Shown here: positions 653 to 27,825 of the stretch, piece after piece | How the letters are laid out: the number at the start of each line of letters is the position of its first letter | How positions within the stretch are numbered: position 1 is the stretch's first letter | NCBI GenBank assembly: GCA_002746935.1 | Contig: PDRW01000028.1 | Coordinates: forward strand, 1-64,000 | Reading direction: 5' to 3' | Source of the DNA: Rhodobacterales bacterium | Lineage (GTDB): Bacteria > Pseudomonadota > Alphaproteobacteria > Rhodobacterales > Rhodobacteraceae | Length of the DNA: 64,000 nt | Notes under the pieces: model-generated | What the model saw: the letters and a program-made list of their open reading frames with translations, nothing else | The model's database searches: none | Told to the model about the DNA's origin: nothing | Made by a program: the position numbers and the translations under genes

Positions 653-3600
653 ATTTGAGTCCGCGCCCCCGTGAGGGGGCGACGGAAATCGGGTGATCCC
701 CACCGGACGGTCTCGACGTTTCAATCCGCGCCCCCGTGAGGGGGCGACAACAGGTACGATCTAGCTGCACCGGGGGTATCTGTTTCAATCCGCGCCCCCG
801 TGAGGGGGCGACTAAGATCGAGAAGCTCCGGCGAAAATTGGCTAAAGTTTCAATCCGCGCCCCCGTGAGGGGGCGACTTCTCGCCATGATGGAGCTTGAA
901 CTCATGACCAAGGTTTCAATCCGCGCCCCCGTGAGGGGGCGACGGCTAAAGGACGCACGAGGGTTCTCTGATCCAGAGTTTCAATCCGCGCCCCCGTGAG
1001 GGGGCGACCGGTACCTATCCGGTTGTGTCTCACAGTCCCTCAGTTTCAATCCGCGCCCCCGTGAGGGGGCGACCTATCGCGCCCTTCACAGTATAACCGG
1101 GACACGGGTTTCAATCCGCGCCCCCGTGAGGGGGCGACAGGTCAAAACCGGTATCTGTCTGCCTCTATGACGTTTCAATCCGCGCCCCCGTGAGGGGGCG
1201 ACGTTGGCATCGTTAGTCTGGTCGCTGGACCTCGGCGAGTTTCAATCCGCGCCCCCGTGAGGGGGCGACGCGGTGCATTGCCGCGTCAGTCTAATAACGG
1301 AGAGTTTCAATCCGCGCCCCCGTGAGGGGGCGACCTCTCAAAACTAGGCCTCACCAAGCGGGCCTTGGTTTCAATCCGCGCCCCCGTGAGGGGGCGACAT
1401 GTGTGTACCCGGTTCCCGGGGCAGCGTGGTTGAGTTTCAATCCGCGCCCCCGTGAGGGGGCGACTTGACTTCACACCTTTTCGGTCTGGATATATGGACG
1501 TTTCAATCCGCGCCCCCGTGAGGGGGCGACGGATTTCGGATACACGCCAAAAACATGGGGTGTGTTTCAATCCGCGCCCCCGTGAGGGGGCGACGTTGTT
1601 TGGCCTTGTCACTGGGATACCCCAGGCCCAGTTTCAATCCGCGCCCCCGTGAGGGGGCGACATTTCGTGGCCCGTGCAGGTGATCTTTTCGACGTGTTTC
1701 AATCCGCGCCCCCGTGAGGGGGCGACGCCCATAGCCCGGGCAAGCTCAGCCTCCAAAGCCGTTTCAATCCGCGCCCCCGTGAGGGGGCGACTTGCGTAGC
1801 GCCGCATTGGCGCCCGGAGGCGTGCCGTTTCAATCCGCGCCCCCGTGAGGGGGCGACCTCTCGCCCCACCCCCCCCCGGCATCGGATCAGTTTCAATCCG
1901 CGCCCCCGTGAGGGGGCGACCCTGGTGGGTGACATACAGCGCCACCAACCGGTGGTTTCAATCCGCGCCCCCGTGAGGGGGCGACTTGCCCTGATGGTCG
2001 GGGTCGCTGCGTGGATTGGGTTTCAATCCGCGCCCCCGTGAGGGGGCGACTTGCTATATAACTTTTGTCATGCTAGATTCAAGCGTTTCAATCCGCGCCC
2101 CCGTGAGGGGGCGACTATCGACGTCATCAAGGATAGCGATGCCGGTTGTGTTTCAATCCGCGCCCCCGTGAGGGGGCGACGGAATAGGCGCGGTGCGTGT
2201 GGGTGTTTCTTCCCGTTTCAATCCGCGCCCCCGTGAGGGGGCGACGAATAGGCGCGGTGCGTGTGGGTGTTTCTTCCCGTTTCAATCCGCGCCCCCGTGA
2301 GGGGGCGACGACGGCGGCGAAGGAGTTCGAGCGCCTCGCCAAGTTTCAATCCGCGCCCCCGTGAGGGGGCGACGACCGCAATTGTCGACTGGTGGACCTA
2401 CTTCACCGTTTCAATCCGCGCCCCCGTGAGGGGGCGACCCGTGAGGTCGGCGCCCGTGAGGTTGGCGTCCGCGTTTCAATCCGCGCCCCCGTGAGGGGGC
2501 GACCCGCGAGGTTGGCGCTCGCGAGGTTGGCGTCCGCGTTTCAATCCGCGCCCCCGTGAGGGGGCGACCATCAGCGGGAGCTGCAAACGTGCGGGTCGGC
2601 GCGTTTCAATCCGCGCCCCCGTGAGGGGGCGACGCGTCCAGTAAATGGTCGGCCCCGAGGGACTCGGAGTTTCAATCCGCGCCCCCGTGAGGGGGCGACG
2701 GCTCTGGTGGTCCAGCGGCTTCTTGAAGTCCATGTTTCAATCCGCGCCCCCGTGAGGGGGCGACCGTCTCGATCATGTGGCACTCCCTTGGTATGGGAGG
2801 TTTCAATCCGCGCCCCCGTGAGGGGGCGACCATCACCGAGAACGACCTGCGCGCCCTGTGCACGTTTCAATCCGCGCCCCCGTGAGGGGGCGACCGGGTC
2901 TACGGGTTTGTACTCAGGCTCCCGGCGGTTTCAATCCGCGCCCCCGTGAGGGGGCGACTTGGGACAGCAACGCATTCCTTGCTTGGCTCCAGTTTCAATC
3001 CGCGCCCCCGTGAGGGGGCGACCTGCATATTTGCTCCGCAGCTTGCGGTTGTGCCGTTTCAATCCGCGCCCCCGTGAGGGGGCGACGCGGGGCTTACAAC
3101 CAGCCACTACAACGCCAGCCGGTTTCAATCCGCGCCCCCGTGAGGGGGCGACGATATGCAGCACATAGCCACTATCAATGCCAACGTTTCAATCCGCGCC
3201 CCCGTGAGGGGGCGACGCGTGCCAGATTCGTCCTCGATATATTTATCCCGGTTTCAATCCGCGCCCCCGTGAGGGGGCGACCTCAATCACATTTTTGCCG
3301 TTATGCCGGACATGTTTCAATCCGCGCCCCCGTGAGGGGGCGACTGGCATCGTTAGTCTGGTCGCTGGACCTCAGCGAGTTTCAATCCGCGCCCCCGTGA
3401 GGGGGCGACCCCCGCATATCGCGGGGCGCGAAAACCGAAAGCGTTTCAATCCGCGCCCCCGTGAGGGGGCGACTACTTAACCTACTGGATATGGTATTAA
3501 ACCATTGTTTCAATCCGCGCCCCCGTGAGGGGGCGACAAGTACACTGGTAAAGCCCTCTATAGCGCGATCGTTTCAATCCGCGCCCCCGTGAGGGGGCGA

Positions 3601-6600
3601 CGGGCACGCACTGGTCCACCTTCAAATCGGAACCGGTTTCAATCCGCGCCCCCGTGAGGGGGCGACCCTACGGGTGCCTTTCTGGATACAGCAAGCAGAG
3701 TTTCAATCCGCGCCCCCGTGAGGGGGCGACCTCAATCACATTTTTGCCGTTATGCCGGACATGTTTCAATCCGCGCCCCCGTGAGGGGGCGACGCCCCAC
3801 TCAGATATGGATCACATGATCAAGCCGGTTTCAATCCGCGCCCCCGTGAGGGGGCGACAGTGCTTGATGGTTCAGCGAACCTGTGTGAACCGGTTTCAAT
3901 CCGCGCCCCCGTGAGGGGGCGACTGGTTCTCTCAGGAGACCAGTTGCGCGGTCGGGTGTTTCAATCCGCGCCCCCGTGAGGGGGCGACGGGCAACAGCGG
4001 GTTGGACGACCGGCCTCAAGGTTTCAATCCGCGCCCCCGTGAGGGGGCGACCTGAAAGTTGCCTGGTGGGTGCACCCGCACACCGGTTTCAATCCGCGCC
4101 CCCGTGAGGGGGCGACGGCCACTAACACTGCAATCATCCACCTGGAGGATGTTTCAATCCGCGCCCCCGTGAGGGGGCGACATAGCCTTATTTTCGGGGC
4201 AATGGTTGACAGGTGTTTCAATCCGCGCCCCCGTGAGGGGGCGACATGGGAAGCTGGGTATCGAGTTCCCGCATATAGAGTTTCAATCCGCGCCCCCGTG
4301 AGGGGGCGACATATAATCGGCGGCCTAACAAGCGGAGCATCACGTTTCAATCCGCGCCCCCGTGAGGGGGCGACTTGTGTGGTTTTGTTGTTTTGTTGCT
4401 GTTAGAACGTTTCAATCCGCGCCCCCGTGAGGGGGCGACAGAAAGGCACTCAACGCTGCTGCTACGGAATCTGTTTCAATCCGCGCCCCCGTGAGGGGGC
4501 GACCCTCTTTTTGGTTTCAAAAATACTTGAGCACGTTGTTTCAATCCGCGCCCCCGTGAGGGGGCGACGCGTGCGGTTAGGGGCGTTCCTGGCCTAAGGT
4601 GAGTTTCAATCCGCGCCCCCGTGAGGGGGCGACAATAGGGAAGTGACTTATTTCACCTGGGATGGTGGTTTCAATCCGCGCCCCCGTGAGGGGGCGACGG
4701 GGCAGATCGCCAGATCTTGTTACCCCACGCAAGTTTCAATCCGCGCCCCCGTGAGGGGGCGACGCGTCCAGTGTCCAGCCGTTTGCGTTCCTGGATCGTT
4801 TCAATCCGCGCCCCCGTGAGGGGGCGACGTGGTTGTAGTCATGGCTTGCCTTCCTTTCTTAGGTTTCAATCCGCGCCCCCGTGAGGGGGCGACATGGTTT
4901 CCATGGGGTTTGCCTGCATCCACGCAGTTTCAATCCGCGCCCCCGTGAGGGGGCGACTTAAACGCAACCATAAAGATCGACATGGGCTTTGTTTCAATCC
5001 GCGCCCCCGTGAGGGGGCGACCCCCCTGACGGGGGCCAGTGGTAGTTGGTTAGTTGTTTCAATCCGCGCCCCCGTGAGGGGGCGACGTCCCCGAATGGGC
5101 GTTTGATGGTGATGAGCATGTTTCAATCCGCGCCCCCGTGAGGGGGCGACCTGCTAGTAGCCACGGACTAGCAGCAATCCAGCTGTTTCAATCCGCGCCC
5201 CCGTGAGGGGGCGACAGCCTAGCTTGTAGATGGCCGTCAGGGGTGGACTGTTTCAATCCGCGCCCCCGTGAGGGGGCGACGATTAGTACGTGATAAAATG
5301 ACTAACCCATTGAGTTTCAATCCGCGCCCCCGTGAGGGGGCGACGGTTAATAACCAGCGTGTCCCGAGGACCGTGTGTTTCAATCCGCGCCCCCGTGAGG
5401 GGGCGACGAGCGGGTTGATTTCCGAGACGTCGACGGCGGCGTTTCAATCCGCGCCCCCGTGAGGGGGCGACCCGGATGCCAGCATGTTGCGCAACGCATC
5501 AGACAGTTTCAATCCGCGCCCCCGTGAGGGGGCGACTTCCGTTTCTAATCTGGCTGTACACGGTCGTGACGTTTCAATCCGCGCCCCCGTGAGGGGGCGA
5601 CGGAGATCAATCGGATCAATGGCGCAGTGGTGGTGTTTCAATCCGCGCCCCCGTGAGGGGGCGACGCGCGAGCGTTGTCGCATCCGCGTCGACCAGGATG
5701 TTTCAATCCGCGCCCCCGTGAGGGGGCGACACCCAACAATCACATCCGGGACACAACTTGCCGTTTCAATCCGCGCCCCCGTGAGGGGGCGACGGTCCGG
5801 CGGCGAGGTGGCCGTCCGCGCCATGCAGTTTCAATCCGCGCCCCCGTGAGGGGGCGACTCCAGGCTGCAAGGATGGGGTGAGGCCATGATGGTTTCAATC
5901 CGCGCCCCCGTGAGGGGGCGACACGATTTTTCTTGCTAATATACACAAGTCCGGTGTTTCAATCCGCGCCCCCGTGAGGGGGCGACTCGGTCCCGCGAGC
6001 ATCGCGCGGGCGTGGATGTTTCAATCCGCGCCCCCGTGAGGGGGCGACAGCTGCCCGAGCACATCAGGGCGGAAATGGAGCTGTTTCAATCCGCGCCCCC
6101 GTGAGGGGGCGACAGTTACCCCGAGCCCGAAACCCACACGACTGGGGTTTCAATCCGCGCCCCCGTGAGGGGGCGACGGTCCGGCGGCGAGGTGGCCGTC
6201 CGCGCCATGCAGTTTCAATCCGCGCCCCCGTGAGGGGGCGACCCTCGCTCATCCGGCCCCGGAAATTCCATCGGGCGTTTCAATCCGCGCCCCCGTGAGG
6301 GGGCGACCGTCCTCGCCGTTCGGCGTCACGATCGCCCACCAGTTTCAATCCGCGCCCCCGTGAGGGGGCGACGGATGGTCCTGACGGGCGTTTTCGTTGG
6401 GGCCCGGTTTCAATCCGCGCCCCCGTGAGGGGGCGACCTGGTTATTGGGTACTGGACGGAGGAGTTCTTGTGTTTCAATCCGCGCCCCCGTGAGGGGGCG
6501 ACAAGGCGAGTTAGCGATGAGGTCGAGATTAAAAACGTTTCAATCCGCGCCCCCGTGAGGGGGCGACGCGCAGTGCCGCGTTGGCGCCCGGGGGCGATCC

Positions 6601-6824
6601 GTTTCAATCCGCGCCCCCGTGAGGGGGCGACTGTCGGGCACGGCCGTATCGTCGCTGAGACGCAGTTTCAATCCGCGCCCCCGTGAGGGGGCGACGCCAT
6701 ACGGGCGTCGATCTCCGCCTGCCGATAGCGTTTCAATCCGCGCCCCCGTGAGGGGGCGACCTGGACTGCGGCTTGGGCCGCGGGCACCGGGTCGTTTCAA
6801 TCCGCGCCCCCGTGAGGGGGCGAC
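653..6824 (-). CRISPR. Subtype I-C CRISPR array, 96 repeats / 95 spacers
   Basis: I counted 96 copies of a 31-base repeat at an average spacing of 64.6 bases, with spacers of about 32-36 bases. In the transcribed (minus) orientation the repeat begins GTCGCCCCC, has the loop TCAC, continues GGGGGCG and ends CGGATTGAAAC. This gives a 7-bp stem with a tetraloop and the 11-base tail that becomes the 5' handle in type I-C, where Cas5 is the processing nuclease. Orientation follows from this tail and from the cas genes pointing into the high-coordinate end, so the newest spacers lie near 6800. Repeats appear identical except the last one (653-683), which has three changes in the handle half, as expected at a trailer end. 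Duplicated and related spacers are listed under findings. Confidence 0.98.
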
Positions 6825-8952: not shown

Positions 8953-9835
8953 CCGGCAGGGCGCGGTCGTCGAGCTCGATCCGGTAATCGGAAAACGCCC
9001 GCGCGGGCGGCAGATTGTGGATCCGCGGATCGCCCACGGGGATGGTGTCACCGCCGCTGACCCGGCTCACCGTCACCCGGTCAAACAGCTTGTGGGCCTG
9101 GGCATTGCCAAGAGCGCTGTCATGTTTGAAGGCGATCAGGCGGCGCGCGGCCATCTCGCCCCGCGCGGCAGAGCGGTCGAGGTCGAACATGTCGCGCAAG
9201 GCGGTCCAGAGCGTGTCGAGGTCGCTTTCCGAGAAGCCGGTCTTTTCGGCCAGTTTGGCGTTGATGAACCCATGCGCGCGATACAGGCCATAGGGCACGA
9301 TGTGCTTGCGGCCCATCTCTCCTTCTTCCTTATCCGTATCAGCGACCCTTGTAATCGTGTTTTCGATTGGCAGGATTGGTTCCTCGGAGCGGGCAAAGGT
9401 AAACTGCACGGGGCCGCGCACCTGGCCGGCATTTGGTCCGGTGGACAGCACGGCACCAAAGGTGCGTATGTCGAAATACTGGGCACACATCCATTCCTGA
9501 AGCAGGCGAATATCTTCCTGAGAACGTGCCTTGGCCAGCTTGGTTTCCCATCCACCGTTTTTCTTGGCGAAGGTTGGAAGGTGCTTTACCTCGCACGCCT
9601 TGGCAATCTTGAGGTTCAGCGGCTCACGTTCCCGAATGAAAATCTCATTTCCATCGCCGCCCATCATATTCACATAATTGCGGATCTTGCGCTTCAGCGC
9701 CACGTCGCTCACCAGGCCCTGGCTGGTTTCCGGGTCCATGCGCGGCAGGTTGCCTGCGTCCGGGTCGCCGTTGGGGTTGCCATTCGCCACGTCAAAGAAC
9801 AGCACGAAATCATATCGGTTTTGCAGGGCGGTCAT
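8924..9835 (-). CDS. cas7: Cascade backbone subunit Cas7 (Csd2, type I-C)
   Basis: A 303-residue Cas7 of the Csd2 family, seven copies of which coat the crRNA spacer in the I-C effector. The family opening is clear: RYDFVLFFDVANGNPNGDPD, followed by PRMDPETSQGLVSDVALKRK. The C-terminal half contains the usual RMGRKHIVPYGLYRAHGF-type segment (here EMGRKHIVPYGLYRAHGF). It starts inside the cas8c stop (ATGA). No defects are seen. Confidence 0.95.
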   Translation of the reverse strand: MTALQNRYDFVLFFDVANGNPNGDPDAGNLPRMDPETSQGLVSDVALKRKIRNYVNMMGGDGNEIFIREREPLNLKIAKACEVKHLPTFAKKNGGWETKLAKARSQEDIRLLQEWMCAQYFDIRTFGAVLSTGPNAGQVRGPVQFTFARSEEPILPIENTITRVADTDKEEGEMGRKHIVPYGLYRAHGFINAKLAEKTGFSESDLDTLWTALRDMFDLDRSAARGEMAARRLIAFKHDSALGNAQAHKLFDRVTVSRVSGGDTIPVGDPRIHNLPPARAFSDYRIELDDRALPDGITIVEPF

Positions 9836-10224
9836 TCCTTGTCCTCCAGAACGGGGGTGTCGTCAGTGTCTTGTTTTGGGGTCCAGCGCTGGTGGTAATA
9901 TCCGGCGATGAAGCGGCCCTGATCTTCGAGGTTGAAAGCACGCGGCAGGTCGGGCGCGAGGCCGGACCAGATCACGCCCAACTCCTTCTCCAGCCAATGG
10001 CCCAGGCCACCATTCCCGCCCTTCTTGAGCAGGGCCAGATGATGGGTCGCATTCTTGATCAGCAGCGGAAACACCCGCGCGGGCGTAGCCGAGGCGGCGG
10101 CGAAATAGCGGTCCTTGATGGTGGCGTTCAGCCCCGGAAGCGCCGCCGATTGCGCGCTTTCCAGCACCGCGAAGAGGCGCCCGAGCCGATAGGCCGGGTT
10201 GGTGTTGTCAGGGTCGAGACTCAC
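9832..10224 (-). CDS. cas11c: Small subunit Cas11c, from an internal start in cas8c
   Basis: Type I-C effectors contain Cas11c, made from an internal start within cas8c. A strong Shine-Dalgarno, AAAAGGAG (RNA sense, 10234-10241), lies nine bases upstream of a GTG opening VSLDPDNTNPAYRLGRLFAV. That is about the expected position, giving 130 residues ending at the cas8c stop. An ATG touching the Shine-Dalgarno is too close to be the preferred start. The predicted product is helical (FAVLESAQSAAL; HHLALLKKGG). The frame is that of the intact 3' half of cas8c, so the upstream lesion does not affect it. Confidence 0.65.
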   Translation of the reverse strand: MSLDPDNTNPAYRLGRLFAVLESAQSAALPGLNATIKDRYFAAASATPARVFPLLIKNATHHLALLKKGGNGGLGHWLEKELGVIWSGLAPDLPRAFNLEDQGRFIAGYYHQRWTPKQDTDDTPVLEDKE

Positions 10225-11534
10225 GGGGATCATCTCCTTTTCGAAATGGGTTGCGTCACGGGATTTCAGGGCGCGGTTGATGACCGCCTTGCAGATCGCG
10301 GCACGGCGGCCATTCACCTCGCCATCGGCGCGGATGCGCCCGACCACCGCCGACAGGAGACTGCGGGGCAGCGGCTGGCCGGTCAGCACCGCGCGCATCA
10401 GCTCGCCGCCAAGCAGCGGCGGGATCGTCTCTGCCTTGGGTTTCCCGCCGACACGGATCGCGGTCTCGTAAAGCAGCGACCAGGCGGCGGGCGGACCGTT
10501 CCATGGCGGGCGGTCCGGGCGGCCTTCGATGCGCAGATCTTCCCAGAACGCCAGCATGTTGCGGGCAAAATCGCCGAATTCACCTACATGCCAGAAGCGC
10601 ACCGACAGCCGTGCGGCGTTGGGCGCAAGGCCCAGCATGCAGACCCGGGTTTGCGGATCGAGCTTCGGATCGGCAGGGCGCCCCGTTGCCACATCCTGCA
10701 AGGCCGCGCGCAGGCGGTTGCGCTCGGCCACCTCGTCCGCTCCAATTGGCCGCTGGCCTTGCGCGCCAGAAGCGCATTCAGCGCCGCGCCATAGGCAAAG
10801 GCCGCGTAGTCCGAGACAGGGGCGTTGTCGCCCTGGGATTTGCCGAAGCTTTCGTAGGCGTCGTTGTTGAACGAGACCAGCGACGCACCCGTGCTTTGCG
10901 CTCCCATCACCCCCTTGATCGACGGGTGCAACCGGGCCACAGGCTTTATCTCTCCGGTGACAAGACAGCGCGCCGTGCCCTGGTTGTTGCCACGCGCCAG
11001 AAGCGCGCCCACGGCGGGCAGATCATGCACATATCGCGGGCCGTTTTCGTCTTCGAACTCGAACACGATGTTCTGGTCCAACGCTTCTGTCGTCCAGCCG
11101 AGGCTCTCGAACCGATCCTTGTTCCAGTCGTTCAGAAACTCCAGCAACGCCTTCAGGCCGGGCTCCTCCGTCCCTTCCAGAAGCTCCTGATGCGCCGTCA
11201 CAAAAGCCGCATGTTCCTCCGCCGTCCGCTTTCCCTCTCCGGGCCGGATTTCGCCCTCTTCCTCGACGGCGATCACCCCCAGCACATAGGACGTCTTGTC
11301 CCAGAACATGTTTGGCCGGATCCCTGCGGTGCGCTTCACCGCCTCAGGCACATTCATCATCGCCGGCACAGGCTTCTTGCCATTTGTGTCACGGCGATCC
11401 GACAGAAAGGGCTCCTTGCCCGGGCGCAGCACGATGGCAAAGCTGATCCTTTCAGATGAGAACCCCGGACGTGGCGCCTCGCCGGCTGCCTGCATCCGGT
11501 CGTAAAGCGTCACCAGTGCGGAGAGAATCGTCAT
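9832..11534 (-). pseudogene. cas8c: Cascade large subunit Cas8c (Csd1), frame-disrupted
   Basis: The 5' part ([14 protein letters not shown] to ALNALLARKASGQ) and the 3' part (DEVAERNRLRAALQDV to VLEDKE) are clearly the two halves of one Csd1 protein but lie in different frames. They meet near 10740-10760. The span from the cas5-overlapping ATG to the stop is 1703 bases, not a multiple of three, so one base is missing or a larger non-triplet deletion occurred. Past the junction the first frame runs on into about 50 unrelated residues before stopping. Cas8c recognises the PAM and recruits Cas3, so interference may be lost. The 3' half could be translated alone from a GTG at 10731, and the small subunit Cas11c lies within it. 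A sequencing error is the main alternative. Confidence 0.85.
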
Positions 11535-12184
11535 CGCACCATCCCTCCCTCGCGCGCCGCCGCCACGTCGATCACCCCGTCGACCATCTCGGCGCGGAAG
11601 AACTGCGCGCGGTTTCCGTGTTCGAAATCAATGTCATAGAGTATCCACCCCAAGTCGCGCGTACCCTTTAGCTGCGAGCGCGGCACCTCTTCGACCCATT
11701 CGAAATCCGCCACGAATTCACGCAGCCCCAGCGCCGGGCGGTGAAAGCACTGCCCCTTTTCCGCGCGCCTGCGGAAAATGTCGAAATGCTTGGCGGGAGT
11801 GTCGTCGCCGGCCTTTTGGGTCATCTCGAAATGCGCTTCGATCACATAGGCCACATCGCGCAGGGCCAGTGTCGCGCGCTGCTGGCGGTGCTCGTCCACA
11901 TTCATGTGCAGCGCCGACAGATCCCCGCTGGTCATGGCCGTCTTCGCATTGCGGGCCGAAATCTTGCCCCCCACCTCATTGCGGCGGATGTTCTCGAAGC
12001 GGATCGGGTTGAGCACATGCAGACGGTCGATATGCCAGCGGATCGCGGGTTTCCAATGCACGGCCTCCACTATGCCCCGCGCCGCCGAGGGTGTGATCAC
12101 ATCATAGCTGACCCGCTCCACCTTCATCTCGGGCCGGGTAAAACAGGCGTAGTCACCCCAGACCTTCAGTTTGATGCCGTACAT
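11531..12184 (-). CDS. cas5c: Cas5 (Cas5d), crRNA-processing subunit of type I-C
   Basis: A 217-residue Cas5 of the I-C type, which lacks Cas6 and uses Cas5 to cut the precursor crRNA at the base of the repeat hairpin and to hold the 5' handle. The opening [20 protein letters not shown] and the following [20 protein letters not shown] are characteristic. The catalytic residues in the family (Tyr, Lys, His) have plausible counterparts in the N-terminal half ([15 protein letters not shown]). The stop overlaps the cas8c ATG. Upstream is not cas3 but the unusual 255-base gap with the repeat-like element, so cas5 may have its own promoter. Confidence 0.93.
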
Positions 12185-12359
12185 TTTGTATCCCTTTGAA
12201 GATGCGGAACTCCGGCAGAGCTCCGTGCAACGCTCTCAACAACCGAGTCTTTGCAAGAGTTTCGATCCGCACCCGGAAGGCAGAAAACGTCACTGAAGCG
12301 CCCAAACAAGTCAGGAACATGACGCGTGGCGCTCCACCCGCGTAGTTCGGAAATTTCAT
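12153..12359 (-). CDS. Possible 68-codon ORF in the cas3-cas5 gap
   Basis: An ATG with an AGGA nine bases upstream opens a frame [20 protein letters not shown] that runs through the repeat-like element and overlaps the first 32 bases of cas5 in another frame. I do not recognise the product. The segment [16 protein letters not shown] is moderately hydrophobic and the rest is basic. It could be a leader peptide coupling translation to cas5, a small toxin-like product, or simply an open frame in a regulatory RNA. No coding evidence beyond start and Shine-Dalgarno. Confidence 0.3.
12259..12274 (-). repeat. Degenerate CRISPR repeat in front of cas5
   Basis: In the cas-sense direction this reads GGGTGCGGATCGAAAC, against GGGCGCGGATTGAAAC in the array repeat: 14 of 16 bases, covering the 3' arm of the stem and all of the 5' handle of a crRNA. 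The 5' half of the repeat is not conserved, so no matching stem is present. The bases following the handle (TCTTGCAAAGACTCGG and on) occupy the place of a spacer, about 75 bases before the cas5 ATG. The array lies 5.4 kb away, so this is not an array member. Confidence 0.75.
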
Positions 12360-12394
12360 TGTCTCATTCCTGTTCTCAGGTGATGCCACGGTTG

Positions 12395-12445
12395 TGGAGA
12401 CAGGTATTTCACTTCAATATTTATTAAAAAGTACTAACATTACAT
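12395..12445 (-). promoter_or_regulatory. AT-rich promoter-like patch after cas3
   Basis: Directly after the cas3 stop the composition flips to strongly AT-rich. The minus strand contains GTTAGTACTTTTTAATAAAT followed by ATTGAAG, standing out in a GC-rich locus. Several -10-like hexamers (TAATAA, AATATT) are possible. I cannot fix a single -35/-10 pair. The position, before the repeat-like element and cas5, suggests an internal promoter. Confidence 0.45.
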
Positions 12446-14671
12446 TAACAGATCCCCCAAATCCTCCGGTTCTGCTTCACAAAAGCCGGCCTGTTCGTCG
12501 TAGAGCCGCGGATTTCTCAGCACGACGAACTGATCCTCGAAATCCTCTGGCCGGACCACTTCGGCCGCCCCCAGCCCCACCAGTTTGTCCCGCAGCTTCG
12601 GGCTGATCTGCACGGTAAAGGGCTGCAAGGCGCGCGCCAGAGCGCCGGCGTGCTCGCTGTGCGCCAGCTTGCGCTGTGTTTCTGCGTCCATGCCGAACCG
12701 GCCGTCGCCGATGATCAGCGGCACGGTGAAATCCTCGATCATCCTGAAATCATGGGCGATACTGGCAAACGGAAAGTCCAGAGAACCGGCCCCGAGCTTG
12801 ATCCGCTGCATCAGCTCTTTGGCATCCAGAGCCGCGCCCCAATCGTGATAAAGCCTGCTGAAATAGGCGGTGATCGCCTCGGGCTGCAAGGGGTCGTCGG
12901 GGTAGTCTGCCAGCACGATTGCCGCCACATCGGCGTTGCGGGCAAGCTCCGGCGGCGGCGCGAAATCCTTGTCCGGTTCAAAGACGAAAACCCGCCCCCC
13001 GCCAGCCTGGAGCCCCTCGCGATTGCAGCGCCCGGCGGCCTGGGCGATGCTGTCCAGCCCGGCCACCGCGCGCCAGACCTCGGGAAAATCCAGATCGACC
13101 CCGGCTTCGACAAGCGCGGTCGACAGCACCAGACAAGGCAGATGATCCGCCAGCCGCGCCCGGATCACGCCCAACACGTGGCGGCGATGCCGGGCGGTCA
13201 TATGGGTCGAGAGGTGAAACACGCCCTCGCCCCGCAGCATGTCGAACAGCATCCGCGCCTGACGCTTGTTGTTCACGATCACCAGCGCCGAGCGGCCCCG
13301 CACCCGGTCTGCCAGCGCCGCATTGTCCAGATAACCCACCCGCTCGACCGTGACCCGCTTCAGCACCTTGTAAAGCCGCGCAGGGTCCGGGGCGATTTCA
13401 CGGGTTGCAGCGCGGTCGAGCGCTTCGGGGCATTTCAGGCCGTCCTGCTTGTGCACCGCCGGTTGCGTGGCGGTGCACAGCACCACCGAACAGCCATAGC
13501 CCCGCACCAATTCCCCAAGCGCCGCGAGGCAGGCCCGCAGGAAAGGCAGGGGCAGGCTCTGCGCCTCGTCCAGAACGATCACCGACCCGGCGATATTGTG
13601 CAGCTTGCGGCATTTCTGCGTCCGGTTGGCGAACAGGCTTTCAAAGAACTGCACCGCGGTGGTGACGACGACGGGCCGGTCCCAGTTCTGCGCCGCAAGA
13701 CGGGTCGCTTCGGCGCGGGTTTCGTCCATGATCTCGCGGGCGTCAAACCCCGTGTGATGTTCGAGAACCGCATCCGCGTCGCCCAGCACCTCGCGAAACA
13801 CCGCCGCGTTCTGGTCAATGATCGCCGAAAACGGCGCCACATGGATCACCCGCCGCTTGCCATGGCAGATCGCGTGATCCAGCGCGAATTTCAGCGACGA
13901 CAGGGTCTTGCCGCCGCCCGTGGGCACCGTCAGCGAAAACACCCCCGGCGGGGACGCGGCAGCCTCGCGCGCGCCTTGCAACACCTCGGCCCGCAGGCGG
14001 TTGACCTCTGTCTGCGGCGGGCCGAAGCGCGCAAGGCGCTCGTCCAGCGCATCGCGCAGCGCCGTCAGCGGCGGGGAATGCGGGCGGCGCATCCCCGGAG
14101 CGTAAAACCGCTCGGTCTCGATGAAATCCGCGTCCACCAGCGCCGAAAACAACATCCGCGTGAAGAAATGCAGGGCAAATCCGGGATCGTCTCTCAGCGT
14201 TTGCAGGGGGCCGGGTATCTGTAGTGCCGGGAGGGTCAGCCATTCCGGCAGGTCAAGGCGTTCGGCCTCGTCGAGGCGCTTGTCCAGCGGGGTCGATGGC
14301 CGCAGCCCGTCCCCGCGCCCAATACCGTTCGCCAGCCCGGCATGATGCCCGGCAATGACATAAGCCATCAGCTTGCCAAGCCCCTGTCCGCACTGCTCTA
14401 TTGCCGCGCGCGCGCCTTCGCCGGAATGCGAAACCCGGATGTTTGCCCCGCTCAACCGGGCCTGAAACGCGGGCTTCGCCTTGCCCAGATCGTGCAACAG
14501 CCCGGAAATGGTGGCGCATATGGCCGCATCGAATGCTGCGGCATTCAACCCGGCCCGGCGAGCCACATTGTCACTGTGGCAAGCCAGCGTTTCCCATTGT
14601 TCCTTTGGAGCGTCAGAAAGAGAATGCGCAAACAATGTCGGTTGGTCTTGGGACAAGCCTGAAGAGGTCAT
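12440..14671 (-). CDS. cas3: CRISPR helicase-nuclease Cas3 (type I-C)
   Basis: A 743-residue Cas3 that unwinds and degrades target DNA after Cascade binding. The HD nuclease domain is at the N-terminus: CHSDNV near residue 32, GLLHDLGKAKPAFQ near 58, HSGEG, and AGHHAGLANG. The SF2 helicase follows: VPTGGGKTLSSL (Walker A), VIVLDEAQSLP (DEAQ box), CTATQPAV, and the C-terminal lobe with LVEAGVDLDFP and QAAGRCNREG. The start is the ATG giving MTSSGLSQDQ. The frame is open for another 400 bases upstream, but that part has no Cas3 similarity and holds the likely promoter. No clear Shine-Dalgarno precedes the ATG. Confidence 0.93.
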   Translation of the reverse strand: MTSSGLSQDQPTLFAHSLSDAPKEQWETLACHSDNVARRAGLNAAAFDAAICATISGLLHDLGKAKPAFQARLSGANIRVSHSGEGARAAIEQCGQGLGKLMAYVIAGHHAGLANGIGRGDGLRPSTPLDKRLDEAERLDLPEWLTLPALQIPGPLQTLRDDPGFALHFFTRMLFSALVDADFIETERFYAPGMRRPHSPPLTALRDALDERLARFGPPQTEVNRLRAEVLQGAREAAASPPGVFSLTVPTGGGKTLSSLKFALDHAICHGKRRVIHVAPFSAIIDQNAAVFREVLGDADAVLEHHTGFDAREIMDETRAEATRLAAQNWDRPVVVTTAVQFFESLFANRTQKCRKLHNIAGSVIVLDEAQSLPLPFLRACLAALGELVRGYGCSVVLCTATQPAVHKQDGLKCPEALDRAATREIAPDPARLYKVLKRVTVERVGYLDNAALADRVRGRSALVIVNNKRQARMLFDMLRGEGVFHLSTHMTARHRRHVLGVIRARLADHLPCLVLSTALVEAGVDLDFPEVWRAVAGLDSIAQAAGRCNREGLQAGGGRVFVFEPDKDFAPPPELARNADVAAIVLADYPDDPLQPEAITAYFSRLYHDWGAALDAKELMQRIKLGAGSLDFPFASIAHDFRMIEDFTVPLIIGDGRFGMDAETQRKLAHSEHAGALARALQPFTVQISPKLRDKLVGLGAAEVVRPEDFEDQFVVLRNPRLYDEQAGFCEAEPEDLGDLLM

Positions 14672-27225: not shown

Positions 27226-27825
27226 ATGGCGCATTCACTCATTCTTGCTTCCCGATCGGAGATTCGTGCCACACTTCTTGCAAATGCCGGACTTGTCGCC
27301 GAACAAATGCCAGCACTGGTTGATGAAGACACAATCAAGGCTGCGATGCTGTCAGACGGCGCAAAGCCCCGCGACATCGCCGATGCCCTGGCCGAGCACA
27401 AGGCACGCCGGATTTCGGCGAAGCACCCGGAAGCTCTGGTGCTGGGCTGCGACCAGGTTGCCGATCTCATGGGCAGGCTTCTGTCGAAACCCGCCAATGA
27501 AGCAGAAGCCCGCCAACAGCTTCGTGACCTCTCAGGCAGGACACACAAGCTGCTGTCCGCCGCAGTGATTTGCCATGCCGGCCGACCGGTCTGGCGGCAT
27601 ATCGGCGTCGTATGTCTTGCCATGAGAAAGCTGAGTGACCGCTATGTTGATGACTACGTGAAACGCAACTGGGCGCGTATTCGCCACACCGTCGGTGCCT
27701 ACAGGCTTGAGGAAGAGGGCGTGAGGCTGTTTTCCCGCATCGAAGGTGACTACTTCAGTGTTCTGGGTTTGCCCCTTACCGAGCTCTTGACCTACCTGAT
27801 CGACAGGGGAGAAATCGCCATATGA
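27226..27825 (+). CDS. maf: Maf-family nucleotide pyrophosphatase
   Basis: A 199-residue Maf/YceF-type protein that hydrolyses modified or canonical nucleoside triphosphates. It opens with MAHSLILASRSEIRATLLANAG, and LGCDQVADL gives the conserved Asp and Gln of the active site. The C-terminal TVGAYRLEEEGVRLFSRIEGDYFSVLGLPL is the most conserved family block. The start is the ATG following the last DnaA box. It heads the maf-aroE-coaE-dnaQ operon. Confidence 0.93.
   Translation: MAHSLILASRSEIRATLLANAGLVAEQMPALVDEDTIKAAMLSDGAKPRDIADALAEHKARRISAKHPEALVLGCDQVADLMGRLLSKPANEAEARQQLRDLSGRTHKLLSAAVICHAGRPVWRHIGVVCLAMRKLSDRYVDDYVKRNWARIRHTVGAYRLEEEGVRLFSRIEGDYFSVLGLPLTELLTYLIDRGEIAI

What the first reader, a model, noticed from the sequence alone, without database searches (positions are those of the whole stretch)
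12185..12439. CRISPR-repeat-like element and small ORF in the only real gap of the cas operon
Sequence: most neighbouring genes from cas5 to cas1 overlap by 4 bases (cas7/cas4 by 29), but cas3 and cas5 are separated by 255. The gap holds an AT-rich promoter-like patch, a 68-codon frame with a ribosome site, and GGGTGCGGATCGAAAC, which matches the array repeat's handle half at 14 of 16 bases in the same orientation. A spacer-like stretch follows. Known: CreTA toxin-antitoxin RNAs and CreR cas-regulating RNAs have degenerate repeats in cas intergenic regions and guide Cascade to repress a toxin or cas promoter. Inference: this is a I-C member of that class, or an autoregulatory crRNA mimic controlling cas5-cas8c-cas7. 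I looked for a TTC-flanked partial match of the pseudo-spacer near the cas promoters and found none by eye.
Basis: partly seen in the sequence, partly recalled or inferred. Interest (0 to 1): 0.8.

Follow-up and report, generated by a model that had tools for sequence, protein, structure and literature searches.

The report
Decayed CRISPR-guided toxin switch in cas operon
The gap between two CRISPR genes holds a worn-out copy of a small switch that, judging by its sequence in many related bacteria, uses the CRISPR complex and a built-in guide RNA to silence a neighbouring promoter, often in front of a short membrane-peptide gene; here the guide no longer fits its target and the CRISPR complex itself is broken.

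Summary
The cas3-cas5 gap (12185-12439) holds the array repeat's handle half (14/16; 1 of 20000 shuffles), a spacer-length stretch and a modest second-repeat-like hairpin. It is conserved: of 45 loci scanned with gaps of 120-1500 nt, window included, 36 carry such a tail. In 28 of these 36 the guide matches a TTC-flanked seed in the same gap at 8 or more of 10 positions (swapped pairs: 22 of 1260). Over 21 aligned modules the match runs past the seed at 13-14 but mostly skips 6 and 12, as in characterised CreTA. A -35-like box follows in 13 of 21 (shuffles: mean 1.3). An RBS-led hydrophobic ORF follows in 13 of 24 (shuffles: mean 0.31). So type I-C systems carry CreTA/CreR-like switches here. 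The window's copy is an exception: best seed 5/10, a frame running on into cas5, and cas8c broken by a ~91-97 nt out-of-frame deletion. Best reading: a decayed I-C CreTA-like module. My paper searches showed no I-C CreTA, but two key papers are not held.

The parts
12440..14671 (-). cas3 (743 codons), upstream neighbour; its stop marks the start of the module slot
   Evidence: Pfam Cas3-like_C_2 and DEAD
12396..12439 (-). AT-rich patch at the place where relatives carry the guide's target and the promoter; a GAA lies at 12413-12415 followed by GTGAAA where several relatives have GAA-N-TTGACA. No seed match to the window's guide
   Evidence: table; target scans
12153..12359 (-). SD-led 68-codon frame; begins MKFPN (relatives' ORFs begin MKLPR, MQYPN, MKWPN) but runs on through the repeat tail and guide into cas5; putative decayed toxin ORF
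   Evidence: against: no significant pairwise similarity to the 14 peptides of relatives compared, no Pfam family
12259..12274 (-). PsiR1: degenerate repeat, handle half GGGTGCGGATCGAAAC; the hairpin half is not preserved
   Evidence: 14/16 to the array repeat; hairpin z +0.4
12226..12258 (-). guide (pseudo-spacer), 33 nt up to the hairpin, TCTTGCAAAGACTCGGTTGTTGAGAGCGTTGCA; 78 of 94 array spacers are 33-34 nt
12205..12225 (-). PsiR2-like hairpin CGGAGCTCTGCCGGAGTTCCG directly after the guide, modest
   Evidence: -13.0 kcal/mol, z -1.7; z is -3 or lower at this place in 18 of the 36 loci
11531..12184 (-). cas5c, downstream neighbour
   Evidence: Pfam Cas_Cas5d 2.8e-46
10584..11534 (-). cas8c N-terminal part, ends in a shifted frame
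   Evidence: Pfam Csd1 profile positions 1-255; tblastn with relatives' proteins
9832..10731 (-). cas8c C-terminal part in another frame; about 91-97 nt missing between the parts
   Evidence: Pfam Csd1 profile positions 291-555; DNA alignment
718..6824 (-). CRISPR array, 95 exact repeats; source of the repeat compared

Best explanation
The gap holds a decayed copy of a type I-C, CreTA-like module: promoter, short ORF, then a crRNA-like gene (PsiR1 handle, 33-nt guide, PsiR2-like hairpin) just before cas5. In intact relatives the likely mechanism is this. Cascade loaded with the guide RNA pairs through the seed (positions 1-5 and 7-11, fading after 16) with a TTC-flanked site touching the -35 box. 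It thus blocks the promoter that reads through the short ORF (or structured RNA), the guide gene and probably cas5-cas8c-cas7. The match is too short for cutting. Loss of Cascade would free the promoter and make the product, in 13 of 24 modules a 27-62 aa hydrophobic peptide that may be membrane-active, so the host is tied to its CRISPR system while Cascade supply is set by feedback. In the window the guide no longer matches the promoter region, the ORF runs on without the stop seen in relatives and cas8c is broken, so the switch is probably dead. Shown by sequence: conservation, the guide-target match and its periodicity in relatives, and the losses here. Inferred: transcription, Cascade binding, toxicity, and the order of the losses.
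For: Conservation: among 132 cas3-cas5 loci, 46 have gaps of 120 nt or more; 45 were scanned (L086 was not) and 36, the window among them, carry the repeat tail; 27 of the 36 have it on the cas strand 50-150 nt before cas5. 28 of 36 have a seed of 8/10 or more against 22 of 1260 swapped pairs. First set with the handle fixed beforehand: 16 of 18 own runs of 5 or more against 5 of 306 swapped. Match profile over 21 aligned modules: positions 1-5 at 19-21 and 7-11 at 18-20 (these ten were used for selection), 6 at 9, 12 at 5, 13 at 20, 14 at 21, 15 at 14, 16 at 12, later ones 0-10 (positions 12-16 were not used for selection). Cheng 2021 (PMC8501985, section read) reports seed 1-5 and 7-11 with 6 and 12 dispensable and a TTC PAM for haloarchaeal CreA. 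TTC is the PAM of a studied I-C system, which needs 27 bp for function (PMC8406640, passages). A -35-like hexamer of 5/6 or 6/6 within 12 nt of the PAM in 13 of 21 modules, shuffles mean 1.3, maximum 5 of 1000. PsiR2 hairpin z -3 or lower in 18 of 36. Hydrophobic SD-led ORFs in 13 of 24 modules against a shuffle mean of 0.31, maximum 2. Window: seed 5/10, none elsewhere in its genome above control, cas8c disrupted. Possible further decay cases: L113 (handle kept, seed 6/10 at the usual place) and L024, a long gap without a handle and sister of module-bearing L021.
Against: No RNA data. The window's frame shows no significant similarity to any of the 14 peptides, so its link to the relatives' ORFs rests on position, RBS, an MKFPN start and one four-sequence alignment. 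The window's handle and guide length are well kept, which is odd if everything were drifting. The genome is a 94-contig assembly, 83.9% complete, so a target elsewhere or an assembly error in cas8c cannot be excluded. cas8c is intact in 13 of 13 testable modules with a matching guide but also in 44 of 45 loci without a long gap (the window and L113 were not in that test), so this proves no link. 11 of 24 modules have no hydrophobic ORF by my criterion (L008 just misses it). For L047/L065 the changes show little third-position bias (37, 27, 40). L071 and L072, counted among the 28, are copies of one contig with a site at +483 and may be chance; L107-L109 are near-identical.
Confidence: 0.77

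Rival explanations
1. Active CreR-type autoregulator: the guide represses the cas5-cas8c-cas7 promoter in the window, with no toxin involved.
For: A toxin-less version exists: L107-L109 have target, promoter-like site and guide gene within gaps of 199-201 nt and no ORF, and Tistrella mobilis L152 has the gap of L109. The window's handle and guide are kept and a modest PsiR2-like hairpin is there.
Against: The window guide matches no TTC-flanked site in the gap beyond 5/10 seed positions, none in the cas locus at 7/10 or more (whole window scanned), nor elsewhere in the genome above control. Cascade's large subunit is broken.
Confidence: 0.07
2. The guide has been re-aimed at another gene of the host, a mobile element or a missing part of the genome; the module has moved on rather than died.
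For: The handle and guide are kept while the local target is lost. 16% of the genome is missing. Best far sites are 8/10 at 27625 in the window and one site with 2 mismatches on contig C86.
Against: Those hits are within control counts: 0 forward and 4 reverse, one of them the guide itself, against 2 and 4 for the reversed pattern. Broken cas8c leaves no complete Cascade to aim.
Confidence: 0.1
3. Chance resemblance in an ordinary intergenic region.
For: Only 16 nt are compared, and the first half of the repeat is not preserved.
Against: 1 of 20000 shuffles; a like element lies in 35 of 44 scanned long-gap relatives.
Confidence: 0.02
4. Relic of an array recombination or a lost second array at the cas3-cas5 boundary, never a regulator in this lineage.
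For: PsiR1 and PsiR2 resemble repeats, and modules come and go (at least 15 changes on a weakly resolved Cas5 tree).
Against: Order and spacing match the modules of relatives, including the RBS-led frame upstream and the distance to cas5 (74 nt; 27 of 36 loci lie at 56-144 nt).
Confidence: 0.04

Closest known systems
CreTA of haloarchaea (type I-B; Cheng 2021, PMC8501985, sections read)
   Same: Two degenerate repeats around a spacer-like guide; TTC PAM; seed 1-5 and 7-11 with 6 and 12 free; in H. hubeiense one promoter (P-creTA) is auto-repressed by CreA
   Different: Type I-C, with Cas5 as likely processing enzyme; the ORFs are 27-62 codons and hydrophobic, not mini-ORFs with rare codon pairs; slot cas3-cas5; the window's copy has lost the guide-target match
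CreTA of Acinetobacter I-F (PMC10097628, passages)
   Same: Sits between cas3 and the first effector gene in some species and is absent in others; the antitoxic function needs the Csy complex, not Cas1 or Cas3
   Different: There the 33-bp toxin ORF is divergent from creA; here ORF, guide and cas5 point the same way in the modules with an ORF
CreR (review PMC12737573, passages; original paper not held)
   Same: crRNA-like RNA that represses a cas operon promoter; L107-L109 and L152 have this architecture
   Different: Many I-C modules here also carry an ORF or a structured RNA between promoter and guide
CrePA (review PMC12737573, section read)
   Same: Cascade plus a crRNA-like antitoxin represses a protein toxin
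   Different: CreP is described as typically a KilA-N protein; the peptides tested here match no Pfam or NCBIfam family above cut-off
Small hydrophobic toxins of type I toxin-antitoxin pairs such as TisB and Ldr (recalled)
   Same: Length, cationic amphipathic or transmembrane character
   Different: No sequence family match; the control would be by Cascade, not by an antisense RNA

Membership tests
CreTA | Degenerate ectopic repeat(s) flanking a spacer-like guide inside the cas locus | tested here: met
   PsiR1 handle 14/16, 33-nt guide, modest PsiR2-like hairpin
CreTA | PAM-flanked seed match (1-5, 7-11) of the guide at a local promoter | tested here: not met
   Window 5/10. Met at 8/10 or more by 28 of the 36 loci with a tail
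CreTA | Toxin gene or RNA between promoter and guide | tested here: inconclusive
   SD-led 68-codon frame without a stop before the guide, no significant similarity to the relatives' peptides
CreTA | Intact Cascade to carry the guide | tested here: not met
   cas8c broken by about 91-97 nt
CreTA | Growth arrest when Cascade is lost | not testable with these tools
   Needs experiment
CreR | crRNA-like RNA whose guide matches a cas promoter | tested here: not met
   No TTC-flanked site at 7/10 or more in the cas locus (whole window); 5/10 in the gap
CrePA | Protein toxin with a KilA-N domain under guide control | tested here: not met
   No Pfam family for the window frame at E 0.001, only sub-threshold matches at E up to 1
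type I-C CRISPR-Cas | cas3-cas5-cas8c-cas7-cas4-cas1-cas2 and array | tested here: met
   cas8c in two frames

The most novel reading that the evidence does not exclude
Type I-C systems of Alphaproteobacteria and beyond carry a previously undescribed set of Cascade-repressed switches in the cas3-cas5 gap, in which one promoter drives a small membrane-active peptide toxin, its guide-RNA antitoxin and the effector genes. Addiction and feedback control would then be one circuit. The window catches a lineage in which guide match, toxin frame and Cascade have all been lost, a natural escape from that addiction.
Probability: 0.45. Interest if true: 0.78.

Novelty: new variant of a known kind. Interest (0 to 1): 0.62.

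Why it matters
It would extend CRISPR-regulated toxin switches to subtype I-C and to peptides of a kind not described for CreTA in the passages and sections I could read. The same slot holds toxin-bearing, toxin-less and decayed forms in relatives, so the question whether such modules really hold CRISPR-Cas in a genome can be asked by comparison: effector genes should break only after the switch is lost. The window is one candidate case. It also gives a simple search rule (repeat tail upstream of cas5 and a TTC seed after cas3) that found modules in Alphaproteobacteria and in records named Thalassolituus, Marinobacterium, Vreelandella and Ramlibacter.

Tried and rejected
Chance match of the 16-mer: rejected. 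Local target of the window's guide with TTC, or after any trinucleotide: none beyond 7 of the first 12 in the region from 60 nt before the cas3 stop to the repeat tail. The scan covered only 1245 nt before the window's cas3 stop, since the locus ends there; the whole window was therefore scanned (27625 at 8/10, 42606 and 54275 at 7/10, none in the cas locus). Target elsewhere in the genome: within control. Known RNA family in the window: none at gathering threshold. Module moved elsewhere in loci without a tail in the gap: 3 loci show one or two lone handles; L058 has a 9/10 seed nearby, L012 8/10 and L034 6/10 (no control run). Plasmid relatives of the gap DNA: none. Named families for the peptides: nothing above a curated cut-off in Pfam or NCBIfam, only weak sub-threshold matches. 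cas8c intactness as a test of addiction: uninformative. Rhizobium sp. Q54 plasmid (L151), with cas3 and cas8c each annotated as two genes, was checked as a second decay case: its gap has no handle above 13.0 and instead a piece of an ORF like that of L100. An ncRNA toxin class is only suggested, by folds of L025, L029, L033 and L068 (z -3.7 to -7.5 against mononucleotide shuffles of a stretch that includes part of the promoter region); L003 and L076 show none.

Rows dropped and caps: one search kept the best 80 of 581 relatives. One search left out L093-L096, L105 and L120, then 11 loci without an upstream cas3, and did not scan L086 (gap 2780). Searches used 21 and 24 of the 25 modules with a gap up to 420 nt and a seed of 8 or more. 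L106 holds 10 masked bases. One search stopped with an error and was repeated. In one search the best of several handle candidates was chosen with help of the target score, which favours own matches slightly; one search fixed the handle first. In one search L003 scores low by run length but 9/12 by count.

Full report
What is there. The window carries a type I-C locus on the minus strand: cas3, cas5, cas8c, cas7, cas4, cas1, cas2 and an array of 95 exact repeats. Between cas3 and cas5 lie 255 nt. They hold, in order, an AT-rich patch, an RBS-led 68-codon frame from 12359, the repeat's handle half GGGTGCGGATCGAAAC at 12274-12259, a 33-nt stretch (12258-12226) and a hairpin (12225-12205) ending 20 nt before cas5. 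The handle matches the array repeat at 14 of 16; 1 of 20000 shuffles of the gap reaches that, and outside the array no other place in the window does.

Relatives. I collected loci around Cas5 homologues from genome searches (family 295, order 390, relatives 60, class 385 and phylum 398 genomes, overlapping) and from one scan of named genomes (best 80 of 581 loci). In 132 of 143 loci examined, the window included, cas3 lies upstream. The gap is under 120 nt in 86, 120-420 in 37 and over 420 in 9. Of the 46 long gaps 45 were scanned and 36 carry a repeat tail at my threshold: 35 of 44 relatives and the window. In 27 of the 36 the tail is on the cas strand 56-144 nt before cas5; in 3 it is on the other strand and in 6 it is further away. 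The stretches after the tail differ between most loci, as guides would; L025/L029 and L107-L109 are near-identical sets.

Guide and target. In the first set of 18 modules with the handle fixed beforehand, 16 have a TTC-flanked run of seed matches of 5 or more in their own gap, against 5 of 306 swapped pairs. In the larger set 28 of 36 reach 8 of 10 seed positions, against 22 of 1260 swapped pairs. In 21 of these 28 the site lies 12-50 nt after the cas3 stop on the antisense strand; L065 and L068 have it on the sense strand, L006 at +94, L010 at +266, and L071/L072, copies of one contig, at +483, which may be chance. Over 21 aligned modules, guide positions 1-5 and 7-11, used for the selection, match in 18-21; position 6 in 9, 12 in 5, 13 and 14 in 20 and 21, 15 and 16 in 14 and 12, later ones in 0-10. 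Positions 12-16 played no part in the selection. This is the pattern of Cascade, in which every sixth base is not read (recalled), and it equals the seed found by mutation for haloarchaeal CreA (PMC8501985, sections read). A studied I-C system needs TTC and 27 matching bases to function (PMC8406640, passages), so these sites should be bound and not cut.

Promoter and product. A -35-like hexamer (5/6 or 6/6) begins within 12 nt of the PAM in 13 of 21 modules, against a shuffle mean of 1.3 and maximum of 5; it is exact in L011, L017, L030, L033 and L106 and weak (3/6) in L003, L076, L077 and L124. Downstream, 13 of 24 modules hold an RBS-led hydrophobic ORF of 27-62 codons that ends before or within the repeat tail; shuffled gaps give 0.31 on average and at most 2. 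12 of the 13 peptides carry net positive charge. Some are related: L011 and L102 share 19 of 31 residues with changes mostly at third codon positions (11, 7, 20); L047 and L065 share 20 of 62 with little such bias (37, 27, 40); L008-L030 and L021-L039 align above shuffles (z 8.1 and 6.1 among 105 pairs tried). No family is known for those tested. The other 11 modules have no such ORF, L008 just missing the threshold. L025, L029, L033 and L068 fold strongly in that stretch, and L107-L109 (and Tistrella mobilis L152, whose gap equals that of L109) have almost no room for any product and look like pure autoregulators. After the guide a hairpin stands where the second repeat would be, with z -3 or lower in 18 of 36 loci; the window's is modest, z -1.7.

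The window as exception. Its guide reaches 5 of 10 seed positions in its gap. In the whole window no TTC-flanked site in the cas locus reaches 7, and nothing in its genome exceeds the control. The promoter region has GAAGTGAAA where several relatives have GAA-N-TTGACA. Its frame keeps an RBS and starts MKFPN, but runs on past the tail and guide and has no significant similarity to the 14 peptides compared. cas8c is broken: L013, L014, L018 and L020 show a net 91 to 97 nt more there, not a multiple of three. The nearest Cas5 relatives (L013 and others, up to 84% identical) have a 9-11 nt gap and no module, while L017 (79%) has an intact one. Over 60 rows the Cas5 tree needs at least 15 changes between tail-bearing and short-gap loci; 25 of its 55 inner branches are weakly supported. 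The window is not the only tail without a good target: 8 of 36 fall under 8/10 (L001, L057, L060, L073, L113, L121, L122, L125).

Reading. In relatives the module most likely works as a Cascade-borne self-repressed switch, CreTA-like where a peptide or RNA lies between, CreR-like where nothing does. In the window it is most likely decayed. That decay goes with a broken effector is what an addiction module predicts, but one case is an anecdote: cas8c is intact in 13 of 13 testable modules with a matching guide and also in 44 of 45 loci with a short gap (the window itself was not in that set).

What is known. CreTA is described for I-B and I-F in the papers seen (PMC8501985 sections and passages; PMC10097628 passages; PMC9458426 passages). 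The term I-C occurs in the main text of none of these three, nor in the review PMC12737573 (passages and one section). PMC8501985 refers to bacterial CreTA modules predicted earlier, whose subtypes I could not see. Paper searches, seen as listings of titles and abstract starts, brought up no I-C CreTA. Two papers that may well list I-C elements, the survey of CRISPR-derived regulatory RNAs (not held; recalled) and the CreR paper (title seen only as cited), could not be read, so the claim of novelty is weak on that side.

Noticed in passing
window 9832-11534: cas8c is in two frames with about 91-97 nt missing near 10728-10760 against relatives; effector probably dead although the array has 95 perfect repeats.
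   Followed up: partly
window 718-6824: Two spacers occur twice in the array (3282/3731 and 5794/6178) and one pair differs at 4 places (2439/2504).
   Followed up: no
L012, L100, L151 cas3-cas5 gaps: The gap holds an ORF with ...YKVTWPNGKIYVGS... (117 and 100 codons in L012 and L100, a shorter piece in L151) instead of the module; it looks GIY-YIG-like by eye (recalled) but the L100 one matches no Pfam family.
   Followed up: partly
L082 gap (similar in L060, L071, L072 by eye): A HicA toxin gene (Pfam 8.6e-15 for L082) lies between the guide element and cas5, with 102-codon ORFs on the other strand in all four gaps that may be the HicB partner (recalled).
   Followed up: partly
L010 gap: The module is turned round: handle and guide on the other strand, target at +266 with 8/10 seed.
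   Followed up: partly
L058, about 3.4-3.6 kb after the cas5 start: A lone handle with a 9/10 TTC-flanked seed match nearby, so such modules may sit at other places in I-C loci.
   Followed up: no
21 aligned modules: Guide position 20 matches the target in 0 of 21 modules, fewer than chance would give; one of 34 positions, unexplained.
   Followed up: no
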